From Agromyces sp. NDB4Y10 (GTDB lineage Bacteria; Actinomycetota; Actinomycetes; Actinomycetales; Microbacteriaceae): a stretch of 64,000 bases of DNA. Positions within the stretch are counted from its first letter, which is position 1. Each line of letters opens with the position of its first letter. The notes beneath the pieces are model-generated. The model saw only the letters and a program-made list of their open reading frames with translations. It made no database searches and was not told the origin of the DNA. The stretch spans positions 1 to 64,000 of the forward strand of contig NZ_LQGY01000055.1 in NCBI RefSeq assembly GCF_001620055.1. Reading direction: 5' to 3'. Made by a program: the position numbers and the translations under genes. Shown here in pieces: positions 43,723 to 50,355 of this stretch.

Positions 43723-44493
43723 ATGCGACATTCGGCGCAGCACCTGGGGGAGCGCCGCGCGGCGGTTCGAACGCCCGCGCGGCGCCCGTCACGTGCGCCC
43801 GAGGGTCGGCGTCGCGCGACCCGCCCCGAGCGCGGGTCGCGTCGCCTCGCCAGGCGACGCAGCGTCGCGGCGCTCGTCGCCGCGGTCGCCGTGGGCGGCC
43901 TGCTCGCCACGGTCGCGCTCGCCCCGCTCCCGCGCCCGTCGGTGGCGCTCGCCGACGCGGCCGCCGGTTCCGTCTCCCCGTTCCGGGGCGAGGTGCAGGA
44001 GGTCGCCGTCCCCGGCGACCTCAGCGTGGCCGGGGTGTCGCGCGAGCGCTACATCACGGCGACCGGACCGGAGACGCTCGTGGCATCCGGCACCAACTAC
44101 GACTGGGCGAAGCTCGTGCTCGTGTTCGGCGACTGGCCGGTGACCGACGAGAACGTGCGGTTCATGGTCGAGTGGATGCGCGAGGAGAACGGCCCCGACA
44201 ACTGGTGGAACCGCAACAACCCGCTGAACAACGGGTACGGATCGGGCGGCGGCAGCGGCCTGGGCAGCTACACGACCCTCGTCGACGCCGCCCGGTACGC
44301 GGCATCCAACCTGCAGAAGCGCACGTTCTACGCCGACATCGTCGCCGCCCTCGAGGCCGGCACGTCAGCGGATGCCGCGGCGCGGGCGGTCTGGGCGTCG
44401 CCCTGGGCCGAGAGCCACTACGGGTACGGTACGTGGTGGTCGACCTCGCCGGTGCCCGTCGTGCCGGCCCCGCCGACGGCGTGGGGTCGCTGA
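43723..44493 (+). CDS. exported protein with lysozyme/glucosaminidase-like region
   Basis: The 256-residue protein has a long Arg-rich N-terminus, one hydrophobic helix (about 48-75) and an exported domain. That domain contains WPVTDENVRFMVEWMREENGP, NNPLNNG and a Trp-rich end. The NNPLN core recalls glucosaminidase and endolysin-like domains, but I cannot identify a catalytic set. It precedes the photolyase gene by six bases. The -10-like TACCCT is nine bases upstream of the start. Confidence 0.55.
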   Translation: MRHSAQHLGERRAAVRTPARRPSRAPEGRRRATRPERGSRRLARRRSVAALVAAVAVGGLLATVALAPLPRPSVALADAAAGSVSPFRGEVQEVAVPGDLSVAGVSRERYITATGPETLVASGTNYDWAKLVLVFGDWPVTDENVRFMVEWMREENGPDNWWNRNNPLNNGYGSGGGSGLGSYTTLVDAARYAASNLQKRTFYADIVAALEAGTSADAAARAVWASPWAESHYGYGTWWSTSPVPVVPAPPTAWGR

Positions 44494-44499
44494 GCCCCC

Positions 44500-45990
44500 G
44501 TGCCCGTGCGCTGGATCTTCGCGGAGCAGCTCGGGTCGCAGTTCGACGACGGCGGGCGGATGCTGCTCGTCGAGGCCCGCGCGGCGTTCGGCCGCCGGCC
44601 GATGCACCGGCAGAAGGCGCACCTGTACCTCTCCGCGATCCGGCACCGGGCGGCGGAGCTCGGCGACCGCGTCGAGTTCCGGCAGGTGGAGCGGTTCGGC
44701 GAGGCCGTCGACGGGCGCGACGACCTCGAGGCGGTCGCCCCGGTGTCGTGGGCGGCGAGGGTGGCGCTCCGGCGCCGTGGCATCCGGATGCTGCCGAGCC
44801 GGGGCTTCGTCACCTCGGAGACGGACTTCGCCGAGTGGATGGCGGGTCGCGAGGGCCGTCGCCCGCGCATGGAGGACTTCTACCGGTGGACGCGCGAGCG
44901 CACCGGGATCCTGATGCGCGGACCCGAGCCGGAGGGCGGCCGCTTCAACCTCGACCGCGAGAACCGGCAGCCGCCGCCGAGGGGAGCGGTCACGCTGGGC
45001 CTGCCGGAGCCGTGGTGGCCCGAGGAGGACGAGATCGACCGCGAGGTGCGCCGCGACCTCGATCGCTGGCAGGCCGACGGACGCGTGCAGCTCATCGGCG
45101 ACGACGGCCCGCGCCGCTTCGCCGTCACCGAGACCGAGGCCGAGCACGCGATCGCCGACTTCATCGAGACGCGCCTCGGCGACTTCGGCCCGTACGAGGA
45201 CGCGGTGCTCACCCACGACTGGGTCATGGCGCACTCGCTGCTCAGCGTGCCGCTCAACCTGGGCCTGATCGACCCGCTCGCGCTCGCCGAGCGCGTCGCC
45301 GCCGAGCACGCCGCCGGCCGTGCGCCGTTGCAGAGCGTCGAGGGCTTCGTGCGGCAGGTGATCGGATGGCGCGACTGGATGTGGCACCTCTACTGGCACC
45401 TCGGGCCCGGCTACCGGCGCGTCCACAACCGCCTCGAGGCGACCCGACCGGTGCCCCGCCCGTTCGCGACCCTCGACACGGCCGGCGTGGACGCCGCCTG
45501 CATCCGGCACACGCTCGACGACGTGCGCGCGCACGGCTGGGCGCACCACATCCAGCGGCTCATGGTGCTCGGGAACTGGGCGCTGCAGCGCGCGGTCGAT
45601 CCGGCCGAGCTCACCGACTGGTTCGCCGGCGCGTTCGTCGACGGCACCCCCTGGGTCATGCCCGCGAACGTGGTCGGGATGTCGCAGCACGCCGACGGCG
45701 GCCTCGTCGCGACGAAGCCCTACGCGGCCGGTGGCGCGTACGTCTCGAAGATGACCGACTACTGCGGCGGATGCCGATTCGACCCCAAGGTGCGCCTCGG
45801 CCCCGACGCGTGCCCGGTCACCGCCGGGTACTGGGCGTTCCTCGACCGGGCCGAACCGCACCTGCGCGGCAACCACCGGATGGCCCAGCCCCTCGCCGGA
45901 CTGCGACGCCTGTCGGACCGCGAGGCGGTCGTCGCGCAGGAGCGGGCACGGGACCTCGACAGCGAGGGCTTCGGGCCGGCTCCGGGCTGA
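44500..45990 (+). CDS. phrB: iron-sulfur bacterial cryptochrome/photolyase (FeS-BCP, PhrB-like)
   Basis: The 496-residue protein belongs to the prokaryotic (6-4) photolyase group. Four cysteines, Cys334, Cys422, Cys425 and Cys438, have exactly the spacing of the [4Fe-4S] ligands in Agrobacterium PhrB (350, 438, 441, 454). The active-site His-His pair is at 349-350. It should bind FAD and a lumazine-type antenna and repair (6-4) photoproducts in UV-damaged DNA using blue light. The GTG start at 44500 lies close to the upstream gene; a second GTG two codons later is possible. Confidence 0.9.
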   Translation: MPVRWIFAEQLGSQFDDGGRMLLVEARAAFGRRPMHRQKAHLYLSAIRHRAAELGDRVEFRQVERFGEAVDGRDDLEAVAPVSWAARVALRRRGIRMLPSRGFVTSETDFAEWMAGREGRRPRMEDFYRWTRERTGILMRGPEPEGGRFNLDRENRQPPPRGAVTLGLPEPWWPEEDEIDREVRRDLDRWQADGRVQLIGDDGPRRFAVTETEAEHAIADFIETRLGDFGPYEDAVLTHDWVMAHSLLSVPLNLGLIDPLALAERVAAEHAAGRAPLQSVEGFVRQVIGWRDWMWHLYWHLGPGYRRVHNRLEATRPVPRPFATLDTAGVDAACIRHTLDDVRAHGWAHHIQRLMVLGNWALQRAVDPAELTDWFAGAFVDGTPWVMPANVVGMSQHADGGLVATKPYAAGGAYVSKMTDYCGGCRFDPKVRLGPDACPVTAGYWAFLDRAEPHLRGNHRMAQPLAGLRRLSDREAVVAQERARDLDSEGFGPAPG

Positions 45991-46200: not shown

Positions 46201-47022
46201 ATGAGCACGATTGCCAGCGCCGCCCGGTCGCAGGTGCTCCGACGCAACAACGTCACCGTCACCGGCGACCCGGCAGGGCGGCCGATCGTGTTCGCGCACG
46301 GGTTCGGTTGCAGCCAGGAGGTGTGGCACGCCGTCGCGCCGCGGTTCGAGTCCGACCATCGGGTCGTGCTGTTCGACGCCGTGGGATCGGGCGCGTCCGA
46401 CCTCGGCGCGTACGACCCGGCGCGCTACGACTCCCTCCACGGCTACGCCGACGACCTCCTGGAGATCCTCGACGCCCTCGACCTGCACGATGCGGTGTTC
46501 GTCGGGCACTCCGTCGCCGCGATGGTGGGGGTCCTGGCCTCGAACGTCGACCCGTCGAGGTTCGGCGCGCTCGTGCTCGTCGGTCCGTCTCCCCGGTACC
46601 TCGACGACGACGACTACACCGGCGGCTTCAGCCACGCGGACATCGAAGGGCTGCTCGACGCCCTCGACGCGAACTACCTCGGATGGTCCGAGACGATGGC
46701 TCCGCTCATCATGGGCAACCCCGCTCGGCCGGAGCTGGGTTCCGACCTCACCGAGAGCTTCTGCAGCGTCGATCCGCGCATCGCGAGCCAGTTCGCTCGG
46801 GTCACCTTCCTCTCCGACAACCGGCGGGACCTCGAGCAGGTGCGCACGCCGACCCTCGTCCTGCAGTGCTCCGAGGACGTCATCGCCCCGCCGGCCGTGG
46901 GTCGGTACGTGCACGAGCAGATCTCCGGAAGCCGGTTCGTCCAGCTCGCGGCCACCGGCCACTGCCCGAACCTGTCGGCGCCCGAGGAGCTCGCCGCGGA
47001 GATCACGGCGTTCCTGCGATGA
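46201..47022 (+). CDS. RsbQ-like alpha/beta hydrolase
   Basis: The 273-residue hydrolase opens with VLRRNNVTVTGDPAGRPIVFAHGFGCSQEVW and has the triad Ser104 (GHSV), Asp226 (SEDVIAP) and His254 (TGHCPNLS). It resembles Bacillus RsbQ and plant KAI2/D14-type receptors, small hydrolases that prepare or sense a ligand for a partner PAS protein. Its stop overlaps by ATGA the PAS-GAF-GGDEF gene, the same pairing as RsbQ with the PAS phosphatase RsbP. The start has AGGAG upstream. The ligand is unknown. Confidence 0.85.
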   Translation: MSTIASAARSQVLRRNNVTVTGDPAGRPIVFAHGFGCSQEVWHAVAPRFESDHRVVLFDAVGSGASDLGAYDPARYDSLHGYADDLLEILDALDLHDAVFVGHSVAAMVGVLASNVDPSRFGALVLVGPSPRYLDDDDYTGGFSHADIEGLLDALDANYLGWSETMAPLIMGNPARPELGSDLTESFCSVDPRIASQFARVTFLSDNRRDLEQVRTPTLVLQCSEDVIAPPAVGRYVHEQISGSRFVQLAATGHCPNLSAPEELAAEITAFLR

Positions 47023-48470
47023 CGATCTCCTCCAGCCCGCCGCCCACCAGGAGCGGCGAAGACGAACTCCACGAGTCGTACGTCGAGCTGTTCCACGATG
47101 CGCCGTGCGGATACCTGACGACCACGGCCGACGGCGTGATCACGCGCGTGAACCGGACCCTCGCGACCTGGACCGGGCTCGGCGAGGACGAGCTGCTCGG
47201 CACCGCTTTCGTCGACCTCCTCACCACGGCGGGGCAGCTCTTCTACGAATCCCGGTTCGCCACCGTCCTCCGGCTCTCCGGCGAGGTCCGCGAGGTCGCC
47301 CTCTCGATGCGCTGCGCCGATCTCCGCGACCTGCCCGTGCTCATCAACGCGCTGATCGTCCCCGCACACGGCGAGCGAGCCGAAGAGATCCGCATCGCCG
47401 TCTTCGACGCCACCGAGCGCCAGGACTACGAGCGCCAGCTGCTCGTGGCCCGCCGCCAGGCCGAGGCCTCCGAAGCACGCGTGCGCGTGCTCCAGGACGC
47501 GTCGAGCGCCTTCGGCCTCGCCATGAGCGTCCAGGAGCTCGGGGAGGCGCTCATCACCGCCGCGCGCACGGGACTGCTCGCCGCGAGTGCGGCGGTCCTC
47601 CTCCCCGGCGAGCGCGACGGCCGGGACCTCATCGTCGACGGCGTCCAGATGGACCCCCTCATCTCCGCGGGCCTCATGGACCTCGCCATGCAGGCGATCG
47701 AGGGAGACGAGGTCGTCACGGTCGCGAGCCTCGACCAGGCGGCGACCATCCGCCCCGATCTCGACGTCGCGCTGCAGGAGCAGCGGCTCGCTGCCCTCAG
47801 CATCGCGCCGCTCCGAGGCGACTCCGGCGCCCACGGCGTCGTCGTCTGCTTCTTCGGGCGCGACCAGGTCTTCGACGACGACACGCGCGACATCCACGCC
47901 GCGCTCGCCCGTCAGGCCTCCCAGGTGCTGCGGCGCGTGCGACTGCAGGAGGAGCTGGCCCATCGTGCGCTCCACGACCAGCTCACCGGCCTGGCCAACC
48001 GCAAGCTGCTCCAGGTGCGACTGGACGAGGCCCTCGCCGGCGCACGGCGCGACGCGCGCCCGCTGTCGATCGTGTTCATCGACCTGGACGGCTTCAAGGC
48101 GGTCAACGACGCCCTCGGCCACCGCGTGGGCGACGAGGTGCTCGTCGAGGTCGCCGAGCGGCTCCGCGGCGTCGCGCGCGCATCGGACCCCGTGGCGAGG
48201 TACGGCGGGGACGAGTTCGTGATCGTGTGCGAGAACGCGGATGCCGAGGCGGCCGGGGTCATCGCGGAGCGGTTCCGGCACGAGGTGGGCCGTCCGTTGA
48301 CGAGCGTGCCCCCCAGCTACAGCGTCGCGGCGAGTGTCGGCGTGGCGACCTGGACTCCCGACGACACGGCCGACGATCCGGAACCCGAACGGCTGATCCG
48401 GCTGGCCGACGAGGCGATGTACGCCTCGAAGCGCGGCGGCCGCGATCGGGTCACATCGGTGACGGTGTAG
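47019..48470 (+). CDS. PAS-GAF-GGDEF diguanylate cyclase
   Basis: The 483-residue protein has an N-terminal PAS domain (residues 17-130, YVELFHDAPCGYLTTTADGVI). A short helix follows, then a GAF domain (about 153-305) and a GGDEF domain (about 320-480). The active site YGGDEF is intact (396-400), with an I-site RASD five residues before it, so it should make cyclic di-GMP and be inhibited by its product. It has no membrane segment. It is coupled to the RsbQ-like gene and probably receives its signal through the PAS domain. Confidence 0.9.
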   Translation: MTISSSPPPTRSGEDELHESYVELFHDAPCGYLTTTADGVITRVNRTLATWTGLGEDELLGTAFVDLLTTAGQLFYESRFATVLRLSGEVREVALSMRCADLRDLPVLINALIVPAHGERAEEIRIAVFDATERQDYERQLLVARRQAEASEARVRVLQDASSAFGLAMSVQELGEALITAARTGLLAASAAVLLPGERDGRDLIVDGVQMDPLISAGLMDLAMQAIEGDEVVTVASLDQAATIRPDLDVALQEQRLAALSIAPLRGDSGAHGVVVCFFGRDQVFDDDTRDIHAALARQASQVLRRVRLQEELAHRALHDQLTGLANRKLLQVRLDEALAGARRDARPLSIVFIDLDGFKAVNDALGHRVGDEVLVEVAERLRGVARASDPVARYGGDEFVIVCENADAEAAGVIAERFRHEVGRPLTSVPPSYSVAASVGVATWTPDDTADDPEPERLIRLADEAMYASKRGGRDRVTSVTV

Positions 48471-48568
48471 TCGGGCACACCGCTCACGGCGCACCGCACG
48501 GCTCGCCCGCCGGCTTCGGTGACGACCTGCGTACCGCCCTGGAATGTATCGCTCGCGAAGGAGGCGAC

Positions 48569-48880
48569 ATGGGAACACTGGAATACAACTCGAAGCTCTC
48601 GGCGACGTTCGACGACCGGACACTCGCCCACCTGCAGGTGGCGATCTGGTCGAAGCTGCGCCGCGGTGAGCACTTCGCATTCACCTGGGTCGACGAGGAG
48701 GCGACACCGCCGAGGACCTCCGTCTGGTGCAGCCCCACCATTCCGATGACGTTCCAGTTCGACCGGGCCGAGCCCGCCGAGCTGAACCCCCGGTGGGTCG
48801 AAGTGCTCACCAAGGCGGCCAACTCGGCAGGTGGGCTGCGACTGATCCCCGAGCCCGTCGAGGCGACCCCCGCTCGATGA
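48569..48880 (+). CDS. small DUF7882-like protein (first of tandem pair)
   Basis: The 103-residue cytoplasmic protein starts MGTLEYNSKLSATFDDRTLAHL and continues with a KLRRGEHFAFTW strand, SVWCSPTIPMTFQF and NPRWVEVLTKAANSAGGL. It aligns well with the next gene product. I recall such proteins as DUF7882; in some databases they are called ATP-dependent DNA ligases, but no nucleotidyltransferase motif is present. The ATG follows AAGGAGG. It sits 98 bp after the cyclase gene. Confidence 0.75.
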   Translation: MGTLEYNSKLSATFDDRTLAHLQVAIWSKLRRGEHFAFTWVDEEATPPRTSVWCSPTIPMTFQFDRAEPAELNPRWVEVLTKAANSAGGLRLIPEPVEATPAR

Positions 48881-48908
48881 GCGCGACACGAACAGGAGGA
48901 GGAACGGG

Positions 48909-49223
48909 ATGGGCACCCTGATCTACGGTCAGCGGATCTCGGAGTTCGAGATCGAGGACCGCACGCTCGCGCACCTGCAATTCGTCATTGCGGCGAAGCT
49001 GCAACGCGGCGAGCAGTTCATGTTCACCTGGAGCCACGGGATGGAACGCGGCAGCGGCCGCAGCGTCATCTGGATCAGCCCCGCAGCGCAGGTGCACTTC
49101 CGCTTCAGCGGCAATCGCGCACCCAAGCTCAACCGGGCCTGGCTCGAGATGCTGATGGACAGCGCGAACAGCCGCGCCGGGCTCCAATGGGTGCCCGAGC
49201 CGGCCGACGCCGCCGGACCCTGA
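48909..49223 (+). CDS. small DUF7882-like protein (second of tandem pair)
   Basis: The 104-residue product begins MGTLIYGQRISEFEIEDRTLAHLQFVI. It shares with its neighbour the KLQRGEQFMFTW strand, the IWISPAAQVHFRF strand and the LNRAWLEMLMDSANSRAGLQWVPEP end. AGGAGGA precedes the ATG. No catalytic motif is visible. Tandem duplication within a c-di-GMP gene set is notable. Confidence 0.75.
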   Translation: MGTLIYGQRISEFEIEDRTLAHLQFVIAAKLQRGEQFMFTWSHGMERGSGRSVIWISPAAQVHFRFSGNRAPKLNRAWLEMLMDSANSRAGLQWVPEPADAAGP

Positions 49224-49264
49224 CACCGCACCCCCGACGACGGAACGAGAGAACGGAGCATCCC

Positions 49265-49537
49265 TTGAAGATCCACCGGCTGACGGTCGACGGCAAAGAC
49301 TACTTCCTGCCCGACCCCATCGACGAGCTTCGCGCGCAGATCCTCGCCGCCATCCAGGCCGGCGGCGGTTACGTCACCATCCCCCCGCTTCGAGGCGGCC
49401 CGGGAATCGACATCCTCTTCTCGCCGGGGATGCCGGTGAGCTGGACCCAGCTCGACATCGGCGATTCCGGCGACGCCTCCGGGACGTCGTCGGGGCAGGA
49501 CCCCGACGAGTTCGCGGATCCCTACAGCTCGCTCTGA
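49265..49537 (+). CDS. small protein, distant relative of the DUF7882-like pair
   Basis: The 90-residue product has a rare TTG start (49265), supported by ACGGAG at a good distance and by similarity beginning there. Its order of elements (IDELRAQILAAIQAGGGYVTI, then GIDILFSPGMPVSW) parallels the two upstream proteins, but identity is low and the tail is acidic. The end overlaps by 16 bp the end of the convergent EAL gene. The function is unknown. Confidence 0.65.
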   Translation: MKIHRLTVDGKDYFLPDPIDELRAQILAAIQAGGGYVTIPPLRGGPGIDILFSPGMPVSWTQLDIGDSGDASGTSSGQDPDEFADPYSSL

Positions 49538-50355
49538 GCCGGACCGCCCGCTTCCGCCCGGAGGCGGGCGGTCATCCGTTCGGGCGTCGACGGTCGGCCG
49601 AACAGGAACCCCTGGGCCCGGTCGAATCCCAGCTCTCGCACCGCTTCCCATTGCAGCTCGGTCTCGACGCCCTCGGCGACCGTGCGCAGCCCTCGATCGC
49701 GGGCGAAGCGCACCAGTCGAGCGACCTCCGTGCGCTCCTCGGTGACGTGCTGGATCAGCGAGCGGTCCACCTTGAGCTCGGTGATCGGCAGCGCGCCCGC
49801 GCGGAACTCGGCCTCCTCGACGGATCGCACGTCGTCGAGCGAGACTCCGACCCCGTGGGCGCGCACCCGGCGGAGGTTGTCTTCCGCGGCGGCGGGCGAC
49901 GGTCGCGACTCGGTCAGCTCCAGCATGAGCAGCTCGGGTCGGATGCCATCAGTCCGCAGCCGGTCGAGCACCCGATCGGCGAAGTCGGCCCGCTCGAGCT
50001 GCACGGCGGCGACGTTGACGGCGACCTCGATCCGTCGTCCCGCGGAGGTCAGGTCGGCAGCGAAGCGGCAGGCGCACCGGAGCATGGCGTCGCCGATGGC
50101 ATCCATCGACCGGGTCTCCTCGGCGATCGGGATGAAGTGCTGCGGCCCGAGCACACCTCGCTGGGGATGGCGCCACCGGCTCAGCGCCTCGACCGCCACC
50201 GTGCGCCCGTCCCGGGCGTCGACCTGCGACTGGAACTCGGCGACGATCTCGCCGCGCACCGCGGCACGCCGCAGGTCGCGCACCACTCGCTGGTTCCCGT
50301 GCACGACACCCTCCCCCGGGCTCTCCGACAGCCCCGGCCATTGTGCGTGCAACAT
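49522..50355 (-). CDS. EAL-domain protein, probable c-di-GMP phosphodiesterase or sensor
   Basis: The 277-residue protein is almost only an EAL domain: EAL at 56-58, Asn114, Glu146, Asp174-Asp175, Lys195, Glu228 and the closing QGFLFGRP. Most metal and catalytic residues are therefore kept. Loop 6, normally DDFGTGxSS, reads DDVRSVEEAE, which may weaken catalysis and dimer coupling. It faces the GGDEF operon with overlapping ends. The start could be ATG 50355 or GTG 50304; the latter has GGGGGAGGG just before it. Confidence 0.8.
   Translation of the reverse strand: MLHAQWPGLSESPGEGVVHGNQRVVRDLRRAAVRGEIVAEFQSQVDARDGRTVAVEALSRWRHPQRGVLGPQHFIPIAEETRSMDAIGDAMLRCACRFAADLTSAGRRIEVAVNVAAVQLERADFADRVLDRLRTDGIRPELLMLELTESRPSPAAAEDNLRRVRAHGVGVSLDDVRSVEEAEFRAGALPITELKVDRSLIQHVTEERTEVARLVRFARDRGLRTVAEGVETELQWEAVRELGFDRAQGFLFGRPSTPERMTARLRAEAGGPAQSEL

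What the first reader, a model, noticed from the sequence alone, without database searches (positions are those of the whole stretch)
46201..50355. RsbQ-like receptor wired to a diguanylate cyclase, with tandem DUF7882-like proteins and a facing EAL gene
The RsbQ-like hydrolase overlaps by ATGA a protein whose PAS domain leads not to the PP2C phosphatase of RsbP but to GAF and an intact GGDEF with I-site. Three small proteins and an EAL protein complete the set, with the last two genes overlapping tail to tail. This would be a ligand-sensing module that ends in cyclic di-GMP, with the small proteins as possible effectors. I know of no description of this combination. It is my best candidate for a new system.
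Basis: partly seen in the sequence, partly recalled or inferred. Interest (0 to 1): 0.8.

Follow-up and report, generated by a model that had tools for sequence, protein, structure and literature searches.

The report
Sensor-swappable c-di-GMP gene cassette
A bacterium keeps the only enzymes we could find in it for making and breaking the messenger cyclic di-GMP in one small gene cluster with small proteins of unknown function, and relatives carry the same cluster with either a chemical sensor or a red-light sensor plugged in, which makes those small proteins good candidates for new parts of this signalling system.

Summary
The genes are as described. An RsbQ hydrolase overlaps by ATGA a PAS-GAF-GGDEF protein with intact active site and I-site, followed by two DUF7882 genes, a third small gene from another family ("S", no Pfam or NCBIfam match), and a facing EAL gene. 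They hold the only GGDEF and only EAL domain found in the 3.34 Mb genome.

The RsbQ-PAS-diguanylate cyclase pairing is not new: Nadezhdin, Brody and Price described it in 2011. DUF7882 was named in 2025 as putative CryoRhodopsin transducers.

New here, as far as my searches reach, is a conserved Microbacteriaceae cassette. Of 80 S loci, 78 have an EAL gene, 76 a DUF7882 gene and 70 a GGDEF gene within 5 kb. The sensor is RsbQ (37 loci), a bacteriophytochrome-GGDEF (31), or both (2). Homologues of the latter from Agromyces and Microbacterium are red-light-activated in vitro (published). All 39 of 299 family genomes with S also have GGDEF and EAL. Fifteen loci of distant S paralogues have neither.

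So the module works with interchangeable sensors. That S and DUF7882 read or relay c-di-GMP is inference. The window's EAL keeps its catalytic residues but has a degenerate loop 6, so its activity is uncertain.

The parts
46201..47022 (+). RsbQ-type alpha/beta hydrolase (Ser/Asp/His triad kept)
   Evidence: Pfam; PDB 1WOM E 1.3e-87; triad
47019..48470 (+). PAS-GAF-GGDEF diguanylate cyclase, ATGA overlap with rsbQ, intact GGDEF, RxxD I-site and GTP-pocket N/D
   Evidence: Pfam; residues; only GGDEF found in the genome
48569..48880 (+). DUF7882 protein D1
   Evidence: PF25355
48909..49223 (+). DUF7882 protein D2
   Evidence: PF25355 E 5.6e-39; AF2 pLDDT 89.8
49265..49537 (+). S: small protein of an unnamed family, TTG start, overlaps the EAL gene tail to tail by 16 nt
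   Evidence: no Pfam/NCBIfam match; 60-sequence alignment; 80 loci
49522..50355 (-). stand-alone EAL protein; catalytic residues kept, loop 6 degenerate (DDVRSVEEA)
   Evidence: Pfam; only EAL found in the genome; residues

Best explanation
The cluster is a self-contained c-di-GMP signalling cassette found in many Microbacteriaceae. RsbQ binds or hydrolyses an unknown small molecule and touches the PAS domain of the cyclase (mechanism known from Bacillus RsbQ-RsbP; inferred here). PAS and GAF then gate the GGDEF domain, which makes c-di-GMP (active site intact; activity inferred). The facing EAL protein removes or binds c-di-GMP (in relatives with an intact loop 6 probably a phosphodiesterase; in this lineage uncertain). 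S and the DUF7882 proteins are small dedicated partners that sense c-di-GMP or dock on the enzymes and pass the signal on (inferred). The sensor is interchangeable: other genomes attach a red-light phytochrome-GGDEF to the same S/EAL/DUF7882 core.
For: Only one GGDEF and one EAL found in the genome, both here, and no PilZ or MshEN hit, with controls that rang. GGDEF directly 3' of RsbQ in 55 of 57 hits. Of 80 S loci: 72 with a convergent EAL within 600 bp, 78 with EAL, 76 with DUF7882, 70 with GGDEF within 5 kb; of 68 loci with at least 4.5 kb on both sides, 60 have all three. Inputs: 37 RsbQ, 31 phytochrome-GGDEF, 2 both, 2 other GGDEF, 8 none (Pfam of 4 phytochromes). S genomes: 39 of 39 have GGDEF (154 of 299 overall) and 39 of 39 have EAL (120 of 299), hypergeometric 4e-13 and 4e-18 (from the lists). 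Control: the 15 fetched loci of distant S paralogues have 0 EAL and 0 GGDEF. Active-site residues: GGDEF 74 of 74, RsbQ triad 92-93 of 94, EAL catalytic residues 80-81 of 81, the one miss being a gap. Gene order differs between loci while membership is kept. Red-light upregulation of enzyme activity was published for phytochrome-cyclases of Agromyces sp. Leaf222, Microbacterium trichothecenolyticum and M. mangrovi (PMC9587094, section 9).
Against: DUF7882 is a multi-copy family also present in genomes without GGDEF (DUF7882 in 193, GGDEF in 154 of 299; two genus mates, G079 and G280, have DUF7882 and no GGDEF), so DUF7882 as a whole is not a dedicated c-di-GMP effector. Eight of 80 S loci show no GGDEF nearby; three of them are cut by contig ends, five are not. 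One full S locus (L164) has neither EAL nor DUF7882 within 5 kb. 32 of 57 RsbQ loci lack a separate EAL. Loop 6 of the window's EAL is degenerate, and the loop varies in many relatives too (G, T, G of DDFGTG present in 63, 32 and 71 of 81). Related genomes are not independent, so the hypergeometric values are overstated. BldD-like and other c-di-GMP receptors were not searched; the riboswitch search had no working control.
Confidence: 0.6

Rival explanations
1. Known RsbQ-PAS-diguanylate cyclase module and an ordinary EAL regulator; the small genes are passengers of the same neighbourhood with unrelated roles.
For: The Q-PAS-DGC pairing is published. DUF7882 occurs without c-di-GMP genes, e.g. 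beside ligD and near a uracil-DNA glycosylase in this genome and beside CryoRhodopsins.
Against: S genomes have EAL and GGDEF in 39 of 39 cases and S stays near EAL in several gene orders. In RsbQ loci DUF7882 is present in 20 of 25 with a separate EAL and in 1 of 32 without. In a quick tree cassette DUF7882 copies have a nearest neighbour from the same place in the cassette in 59 of 60, 19 of 20, 31 of 32 and 8 of 8 cases (and 6 of 8 for unclassed ones; non-cassette copies 10 of 18), though close relatives inflate this.
Confidence: 0.2
2. The window's EAL protein is itself the c-di-GMP receptor (catalytically weak), so the cassette makes the signal and reads it with the EAL protein, while S/DUF7882 tune it.
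For: Loop 6 is lost in 6 of 81 EAL sequences: the window, four Agromyces loci (L100, L101, L102, L104) and L176. No PilZ or MshEN hit in the genome.
Against: All metal- and substrate-binding residues looked at are kept. The other 75 of 81 keep more of the loop, although it varies in many of them, so a full loss would be specific to this lineage.
Confidence: 0.2

Closest known systems
RsbQ-PAS bipartite sensing module with diguanylate cyclase output (Nadezhdin, Brody, Price 2011, PMC3183031)
   Same: RsbQ gene directly upstream of a protein whose most N-terminal domain is PAS and whose output is GGDEF; triad kept; several of the listed PAS residues kept
   Different: A GAF domain sits between PAS and GGDEF; a D-A-T stretch follows the PAS, while the paper says its RsbP-PAS sequences lack the DIT motif; the parts I read (abstract, sections 5, 6, 11 part 1 of 2) say nothing of DUF7882, S or a facing EAL gene
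B. subtilis RsbQP (sigma-B energy stress)
   Same: hydrolase plus PAS input, adjacent genes
   Different: GGDEF in place of the PPM/PP2C phosphatase; no partner-switch gene among the cluster genes scanned
Phytochrome-activated diguanylate cyclases, PadC -4 branch (PMC9587094)
   Same: PAS_2-GAF-PHY-GGDEF proteins of the sister cassettes; characterised homologues come from Agromyces and Microbacterium and are light-activated in vitro
   Different: The window has RsbQ-PAS-GAF-GGDEF in its place; the passages I read of that paper do not treat neighbouring genes
CryoRhodopsin putative transducers, DUF7882/PF25355 (PMC12227055)
   Same: D1 and D2 match PF25355 far above its cut-off
   Different: Partner here is a c-di-GMP cassette; no rhodopsin among the 9 window proteins scanned; I did not compare my model with theirs

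Membership tests
RsbQ-PAS module | RsbQ homologue directly upstream of the PAS protein | tested here: met
   ATGA overlap; 55 of 57 RsbQ hits have the GGDEF protein next
RsbQ-PAS module | intact Ser/Asp/His triad in RsbQ | tested here: met
   window S, D, H; 93/92/92 of 94
[quoted passage not shown]
   Pfam
RsbQ-PAS module | nine distinguishing PAS residues (C10, L13, L48, Q53, F55, C56, Y59, E72, P86 of B. subtilis) | tested here: inconclusive
   window C, L, L, Q, F, Y, R, E, P by spacing; the legend gives consensus classes (C, L, E, P, h, b, a, n) but the text I saw does not tie each to a position
RsbQ-PAS module | no DIT motif after PAS | tested here: not met
   window D-A-T; D in 38 of 41, T in 28 of 41; whether D-A-T counts as DIT is open
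RsbQ-PAS module | coiled coil of 21 or more residues between PAS and output (36 of 45 in the paper) | not tested
   no coiled-coil prediction was run
RsbQ-PAS module | physical RsbQ-PAS contact | not testable with these tools
   needs pull-down or two-hybrid
Diguanylate cyclase | GGDEF, RxxD I-site, metal D and GTP-binding N/D | tested here: met
   window and 74 of 74
EAL phosphodiesterase | catalytic Q, E, N, E, D, D, K, E, Q | tested here: met
   window, and 80-81 of 81
EAL phosphodiesterase | loop 6 DDFGTG(Y/H)SS | tested here: not met
   window DDVRSVEEA
DUF7882 (PF25355) | Pfam score of D1 and D2 over cut-off | tested here: met
   112 and 132 bits vs 27
DUF7882 (PF25355) | S is a member | tested here: not met
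   no Pfam hit; hhalign probability 0.4-0.9%, though the predicted order b-b-a-b-b-b agrees

The most novel reading that the evidence does not exclude
S is the founding member of a new c-di-GMP receptor or enzyme-docking family. Its stretch IPPLRGGPGID together with R5, D12, F14, Y36, F52 and W60, conserved in S but largely absent from paralogues that lack c-di-GMP neighbours, is the ligand or partner site. With the cassette DUF7882 proteins (rings, if they pentamerise as predicted for CryoRhodopsin transducers) it forms the common output of chemically (RsbQ) and light (phytochrome) gated cyclases, in this genome without any PilZ protein.
Probability: 0.35. Interest if true: 0.85.

Novelty: new variant of a known kind. 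Interest (0 to 1): 0.6.

Why it matters
Two open questions become testable in one small system: what DUF7882 does, and how a bacterium with a single cyclase and no PilZ hit reads c-di-GMP. It also gives RsbQ (the bacterial relative of plant karrikin and strigolactone receptors, signal unknown) a measurable output, and the sister cassettes offer red light as an experimental switch for the same core.

Tried and rejected
S as a DUF7882 member: rejected on sequence, although the same order of predicted elements leaves distant homology open. Fold of S and DUF7882 in the PDB: no match with E below 0.001 for either; the S model is of moderate confidence (pLDDT 74, pTM 0.50). A link between the neighbouring photolyase-related gene (44500-45990) and the cassette: rejected, no homologue at E<=1e-12 in the 136 locus stretches compared (L044-L179, some of them the same region twice). 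The dnaK operon as part of the system: rejected, found only in 3 Agromyces loci of these 136. c-di-GMP-I riboswitch as effector: no hit, but the control rang nowhere, so uninformative. Sensors beside other DUF7882 copies and S paralogues: 20 neighbours scanned, mixed and partly without match (LigD, UDG, desaturase, M23 peptidase, transporter and others); no common theme. The gene behind the one RsbQ hit without GGDEF (L088) was not identified.

Rows dropped: S statistics use the 39 genomes with E<=1e-35; the 18 weaker S hits were treated as paralogues, 15 of 18 fetched, 14 of these 15 used in the residue comparison (L198 left out as partial). The search for related loci kept 80 of 86 relatives. 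Alignment A3 uses the window and 59 of the 80 loci. S and EAL reading frames overlap in 12 of 72 convergent pairs; in 11 by 4-16 nt, and in L107 the EAL frame stays open 549 nt through S. Two of the 39 RsbQ-bearing S loci (L113, L123) show no GGDEF because the contig ends. DUF7882 counts per genome may be capped at 16.
Full report
OBSERVATION. The window lies in contig C55 of a 3.34 Mb, 69-contig assembly rated 100% complete. ORFs and Pfam scans confirm rsbQ (46201-47022+), a PAS-GAF-GGDEF gene (47019-48470+), two DUF7882 genes (48569-48880+, 48909-49223+), a third small gene S (49265-49537+) without a Pfam match, and an EAL gene (49522-50355-). Gaps are -4, 98, 28, 41 and -16 nt, so the first five genes look like one operon (inference; no terminator-like site in the gaps). 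The hydrolase matches B. subtilis RsbQ 1WOM at E 1.3e-87, ahead of the plant D14/KAI2 receptors. Searches of the whole genome found one GGDEF and one EAL, both here, and 11 DUF7882 copies, two of them here. PilZ and MshEN gave no hit, with working controls.

ORGANISM. Three Agromyces loci (L100, L102, L104) share the cassette order and the flanking hspR-dnaJ-grpE-dnaK genes (DnaK 94% identical), so the window is probably from Agromyces or a close relative. The five other genomes of the genus in the sample have no RsbQ hit at E<=1e-40, and two of them no GGDEF (G079, G280), so the cassette is patchy.

RSBQ LOCI. In 299 genomes of the family, 52 have an RsbQ hit at E<=1e-40, 57 hits in all. In 55 of 57 a GGDEF protein follows directly; the misses are L088 (a more distant hydrolase, no GGDEF found) and L092 (contig end). 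A separate EAL gene is near in 25, an EAL fused behind GGDEF in 8, S in 22, DUF7882 in 21 (interval -3 to +4.5 kb). With at most about 16 DUF7882 copies scored per genome (16 may be a cap), chance would give roughly 3% per locus (my estimate). DUF7882 goes with the separate EAL (20 of 25) and not with RsbQ alone (1 of 32).

S LOCI. One scan of 84,980 species genomes with the S alignment kept 80 loci of 86 relatives, labelled Microbacteriaceae genera or unresolved actinobacteria, except one MAG labelled Acidobacteria (L124). Of 80: convergent EAL within 600 bp in 72, EAL within 5 kb in 78, DUF7882 in 76, GGDEF in 70, RsbQ in 39. Of the 68 with at least 4.5 kb on both sides: 61, 67, 65, 63, 31; all of EAL, DUF7882 and GGDEF in 60. 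The two without EAL are L103 (contig end) and L164. Where RsbQ is missing the cyclase is mostly a bacteriophytochrome PAS_2-GAF-PHY-GGDEF (Pfam on 4 of them; a profile built from these 4 for the rest). Typing all 80: 37 RsbQ, 31 phytochrome-GGDEF, 2 both, 2 other GGDEF, 8 none, of which 3 are cut by contig ends. Gene order varies (S/EAL convergent in 72, else divergent or apart; DUF7882 divergent from S, on the same strand, beyond EAL or behind the cyclase), so membership outlives rearrangement.

CO-OCCURRENCE AND CONTROL. 39 of 299 genomes hold S at E<=1e-35. All 39 have GGDEF (154 of 299 overall) and all 39 have EAL (120 of 299); in 29 the EAL is the only one and in 13 both domains are single. 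Relatedness makes the hypergeometric values (4e-13, 4e-18) too small. Distant S paralogues are a built-in control: 15 of 18 weak hits were fetched, 5 of 15 have DUF7882 within 1 kb, none has EAL or GGDEF in the stretch fetched (about 6 kb a side, 3 kb on one side of L180). Residues R5, D12, F14, P18, Y36, P40, P41, L42, R43, G47, F52 and W60 are kept in at least 54 of 60 S and in at most 4 of 14 paralogues (R43 falls in a gap there).

ENZYME STATE. GGDEF, I-site and GTP-pocket residues are intact in 74 of 74. EAL catalytic residues are intact in 80-81 of 81. Loop 6 is lost in the window, L100, L101, L102, L104 and L176, and varies in many others (G, T, G of DDFGTG in 63, 32 and 71 of 81). That loop 6 matters for activity is recalled; the passages seen in PMC12900916 only label it.

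SMALL PROTEINS. DUF7882 was deposited by the authors of PMC12227055 as putative CryoRhodopsin transducers predicted to form pentamers (section 13 read in full). My AF2 model of D2 (pLDDT 89.8) is b-b-a-b-b-b-a; that of S (pLDDT 74) is b-b-a-b-b-b. Neither has a PDB match below E 0.001. Sequence comparison does not show S and DUF7882 to be related. Cassette DUF7882 copies cluster by their place in the cassette in a quick tree of 147 short sequences.

KNOWN AND NEW. Known: RsbQ-PAS with diguanylate cyclase output (PMC3183031; abstract, sections 5, 6 and part 1 of 2 of section 11 read); red-light-activated cyclases from Agromyces sp. Leaf222, Microbacterium trichothecenolyticum and M. mangrovi (PMC9587094; passages and section 9 read). 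Loci L158 and L135 from the last two species carry phytochrome hits beside S; that these are the published proteins is inference. Not found in print: the S family, and any link of DUF7882 or S to c-di-GMP. Searches: 'DUF7882' (one paper), 'Microbacteriaceae' with 'diguanylate cyclase' (listing only), 'bacteriophytochrome' with 'diguanylate cyclase' and 'Microbacterium', 'Agromyces' with 'c-di-GMP' (listing only apart from PMC9587094), 'RsbQ' with 'diguanylate cyclase', with 'GGDEF', and with PAS/hydrolase/strigolactone terms. Only open-licence PMC papers are held, so this is a limited negative; S has no name to search by.

MECHANISM. Shown: gene content, conservation, residue state, sensor exchange. 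Inferred from established families: RsbQ gates PAS; GGDEF makes and EAL removes c-di-GMP. Inferred only from association: S and DUF7882 read or relay the signal.

Noticed in passing
44500-45990: Photolyase-related gene (PF04244 DPRP) directly upstream of the cassette; no homologue at E<=1e-12 in the 136 cassette stretches compared.
   Followed up: partly
L182 (G000:C34:40000-58000): A DUF7882 gene sits directly behind ligD (LigD primase-polymerase/ligase) in this genome, and another copy lies near a uracil-DNA glycosylase gene (L181). Possible link of DUF7882 to DNA repair or UV response, not tested.
   Followed up: partly
L189:6625-7295: By my simple gene calls a distant S paralogue and a DUF7882 gene overlap by 4 bases on one strand, a hint that S-like and DUF7882 proteins may act as pairs beyond the cassette.
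   Followed up: no
L149 (Agromyces allii): Carries both a phytochrome-GGDEF and an RsbQ-PAS-GAF-GGDEF gene in one cassette; one of two such loci among 80.
   Followed up: partly
43867-44493: Gene without Pfam match; in Agromyces L100, L102, L104 its homologue lies on the other side of the cassette, between EAL and hspR.
   Followed up: no
L107: The EAL reading frame stays open 549 nt, antisense through S.
   Followed up: no
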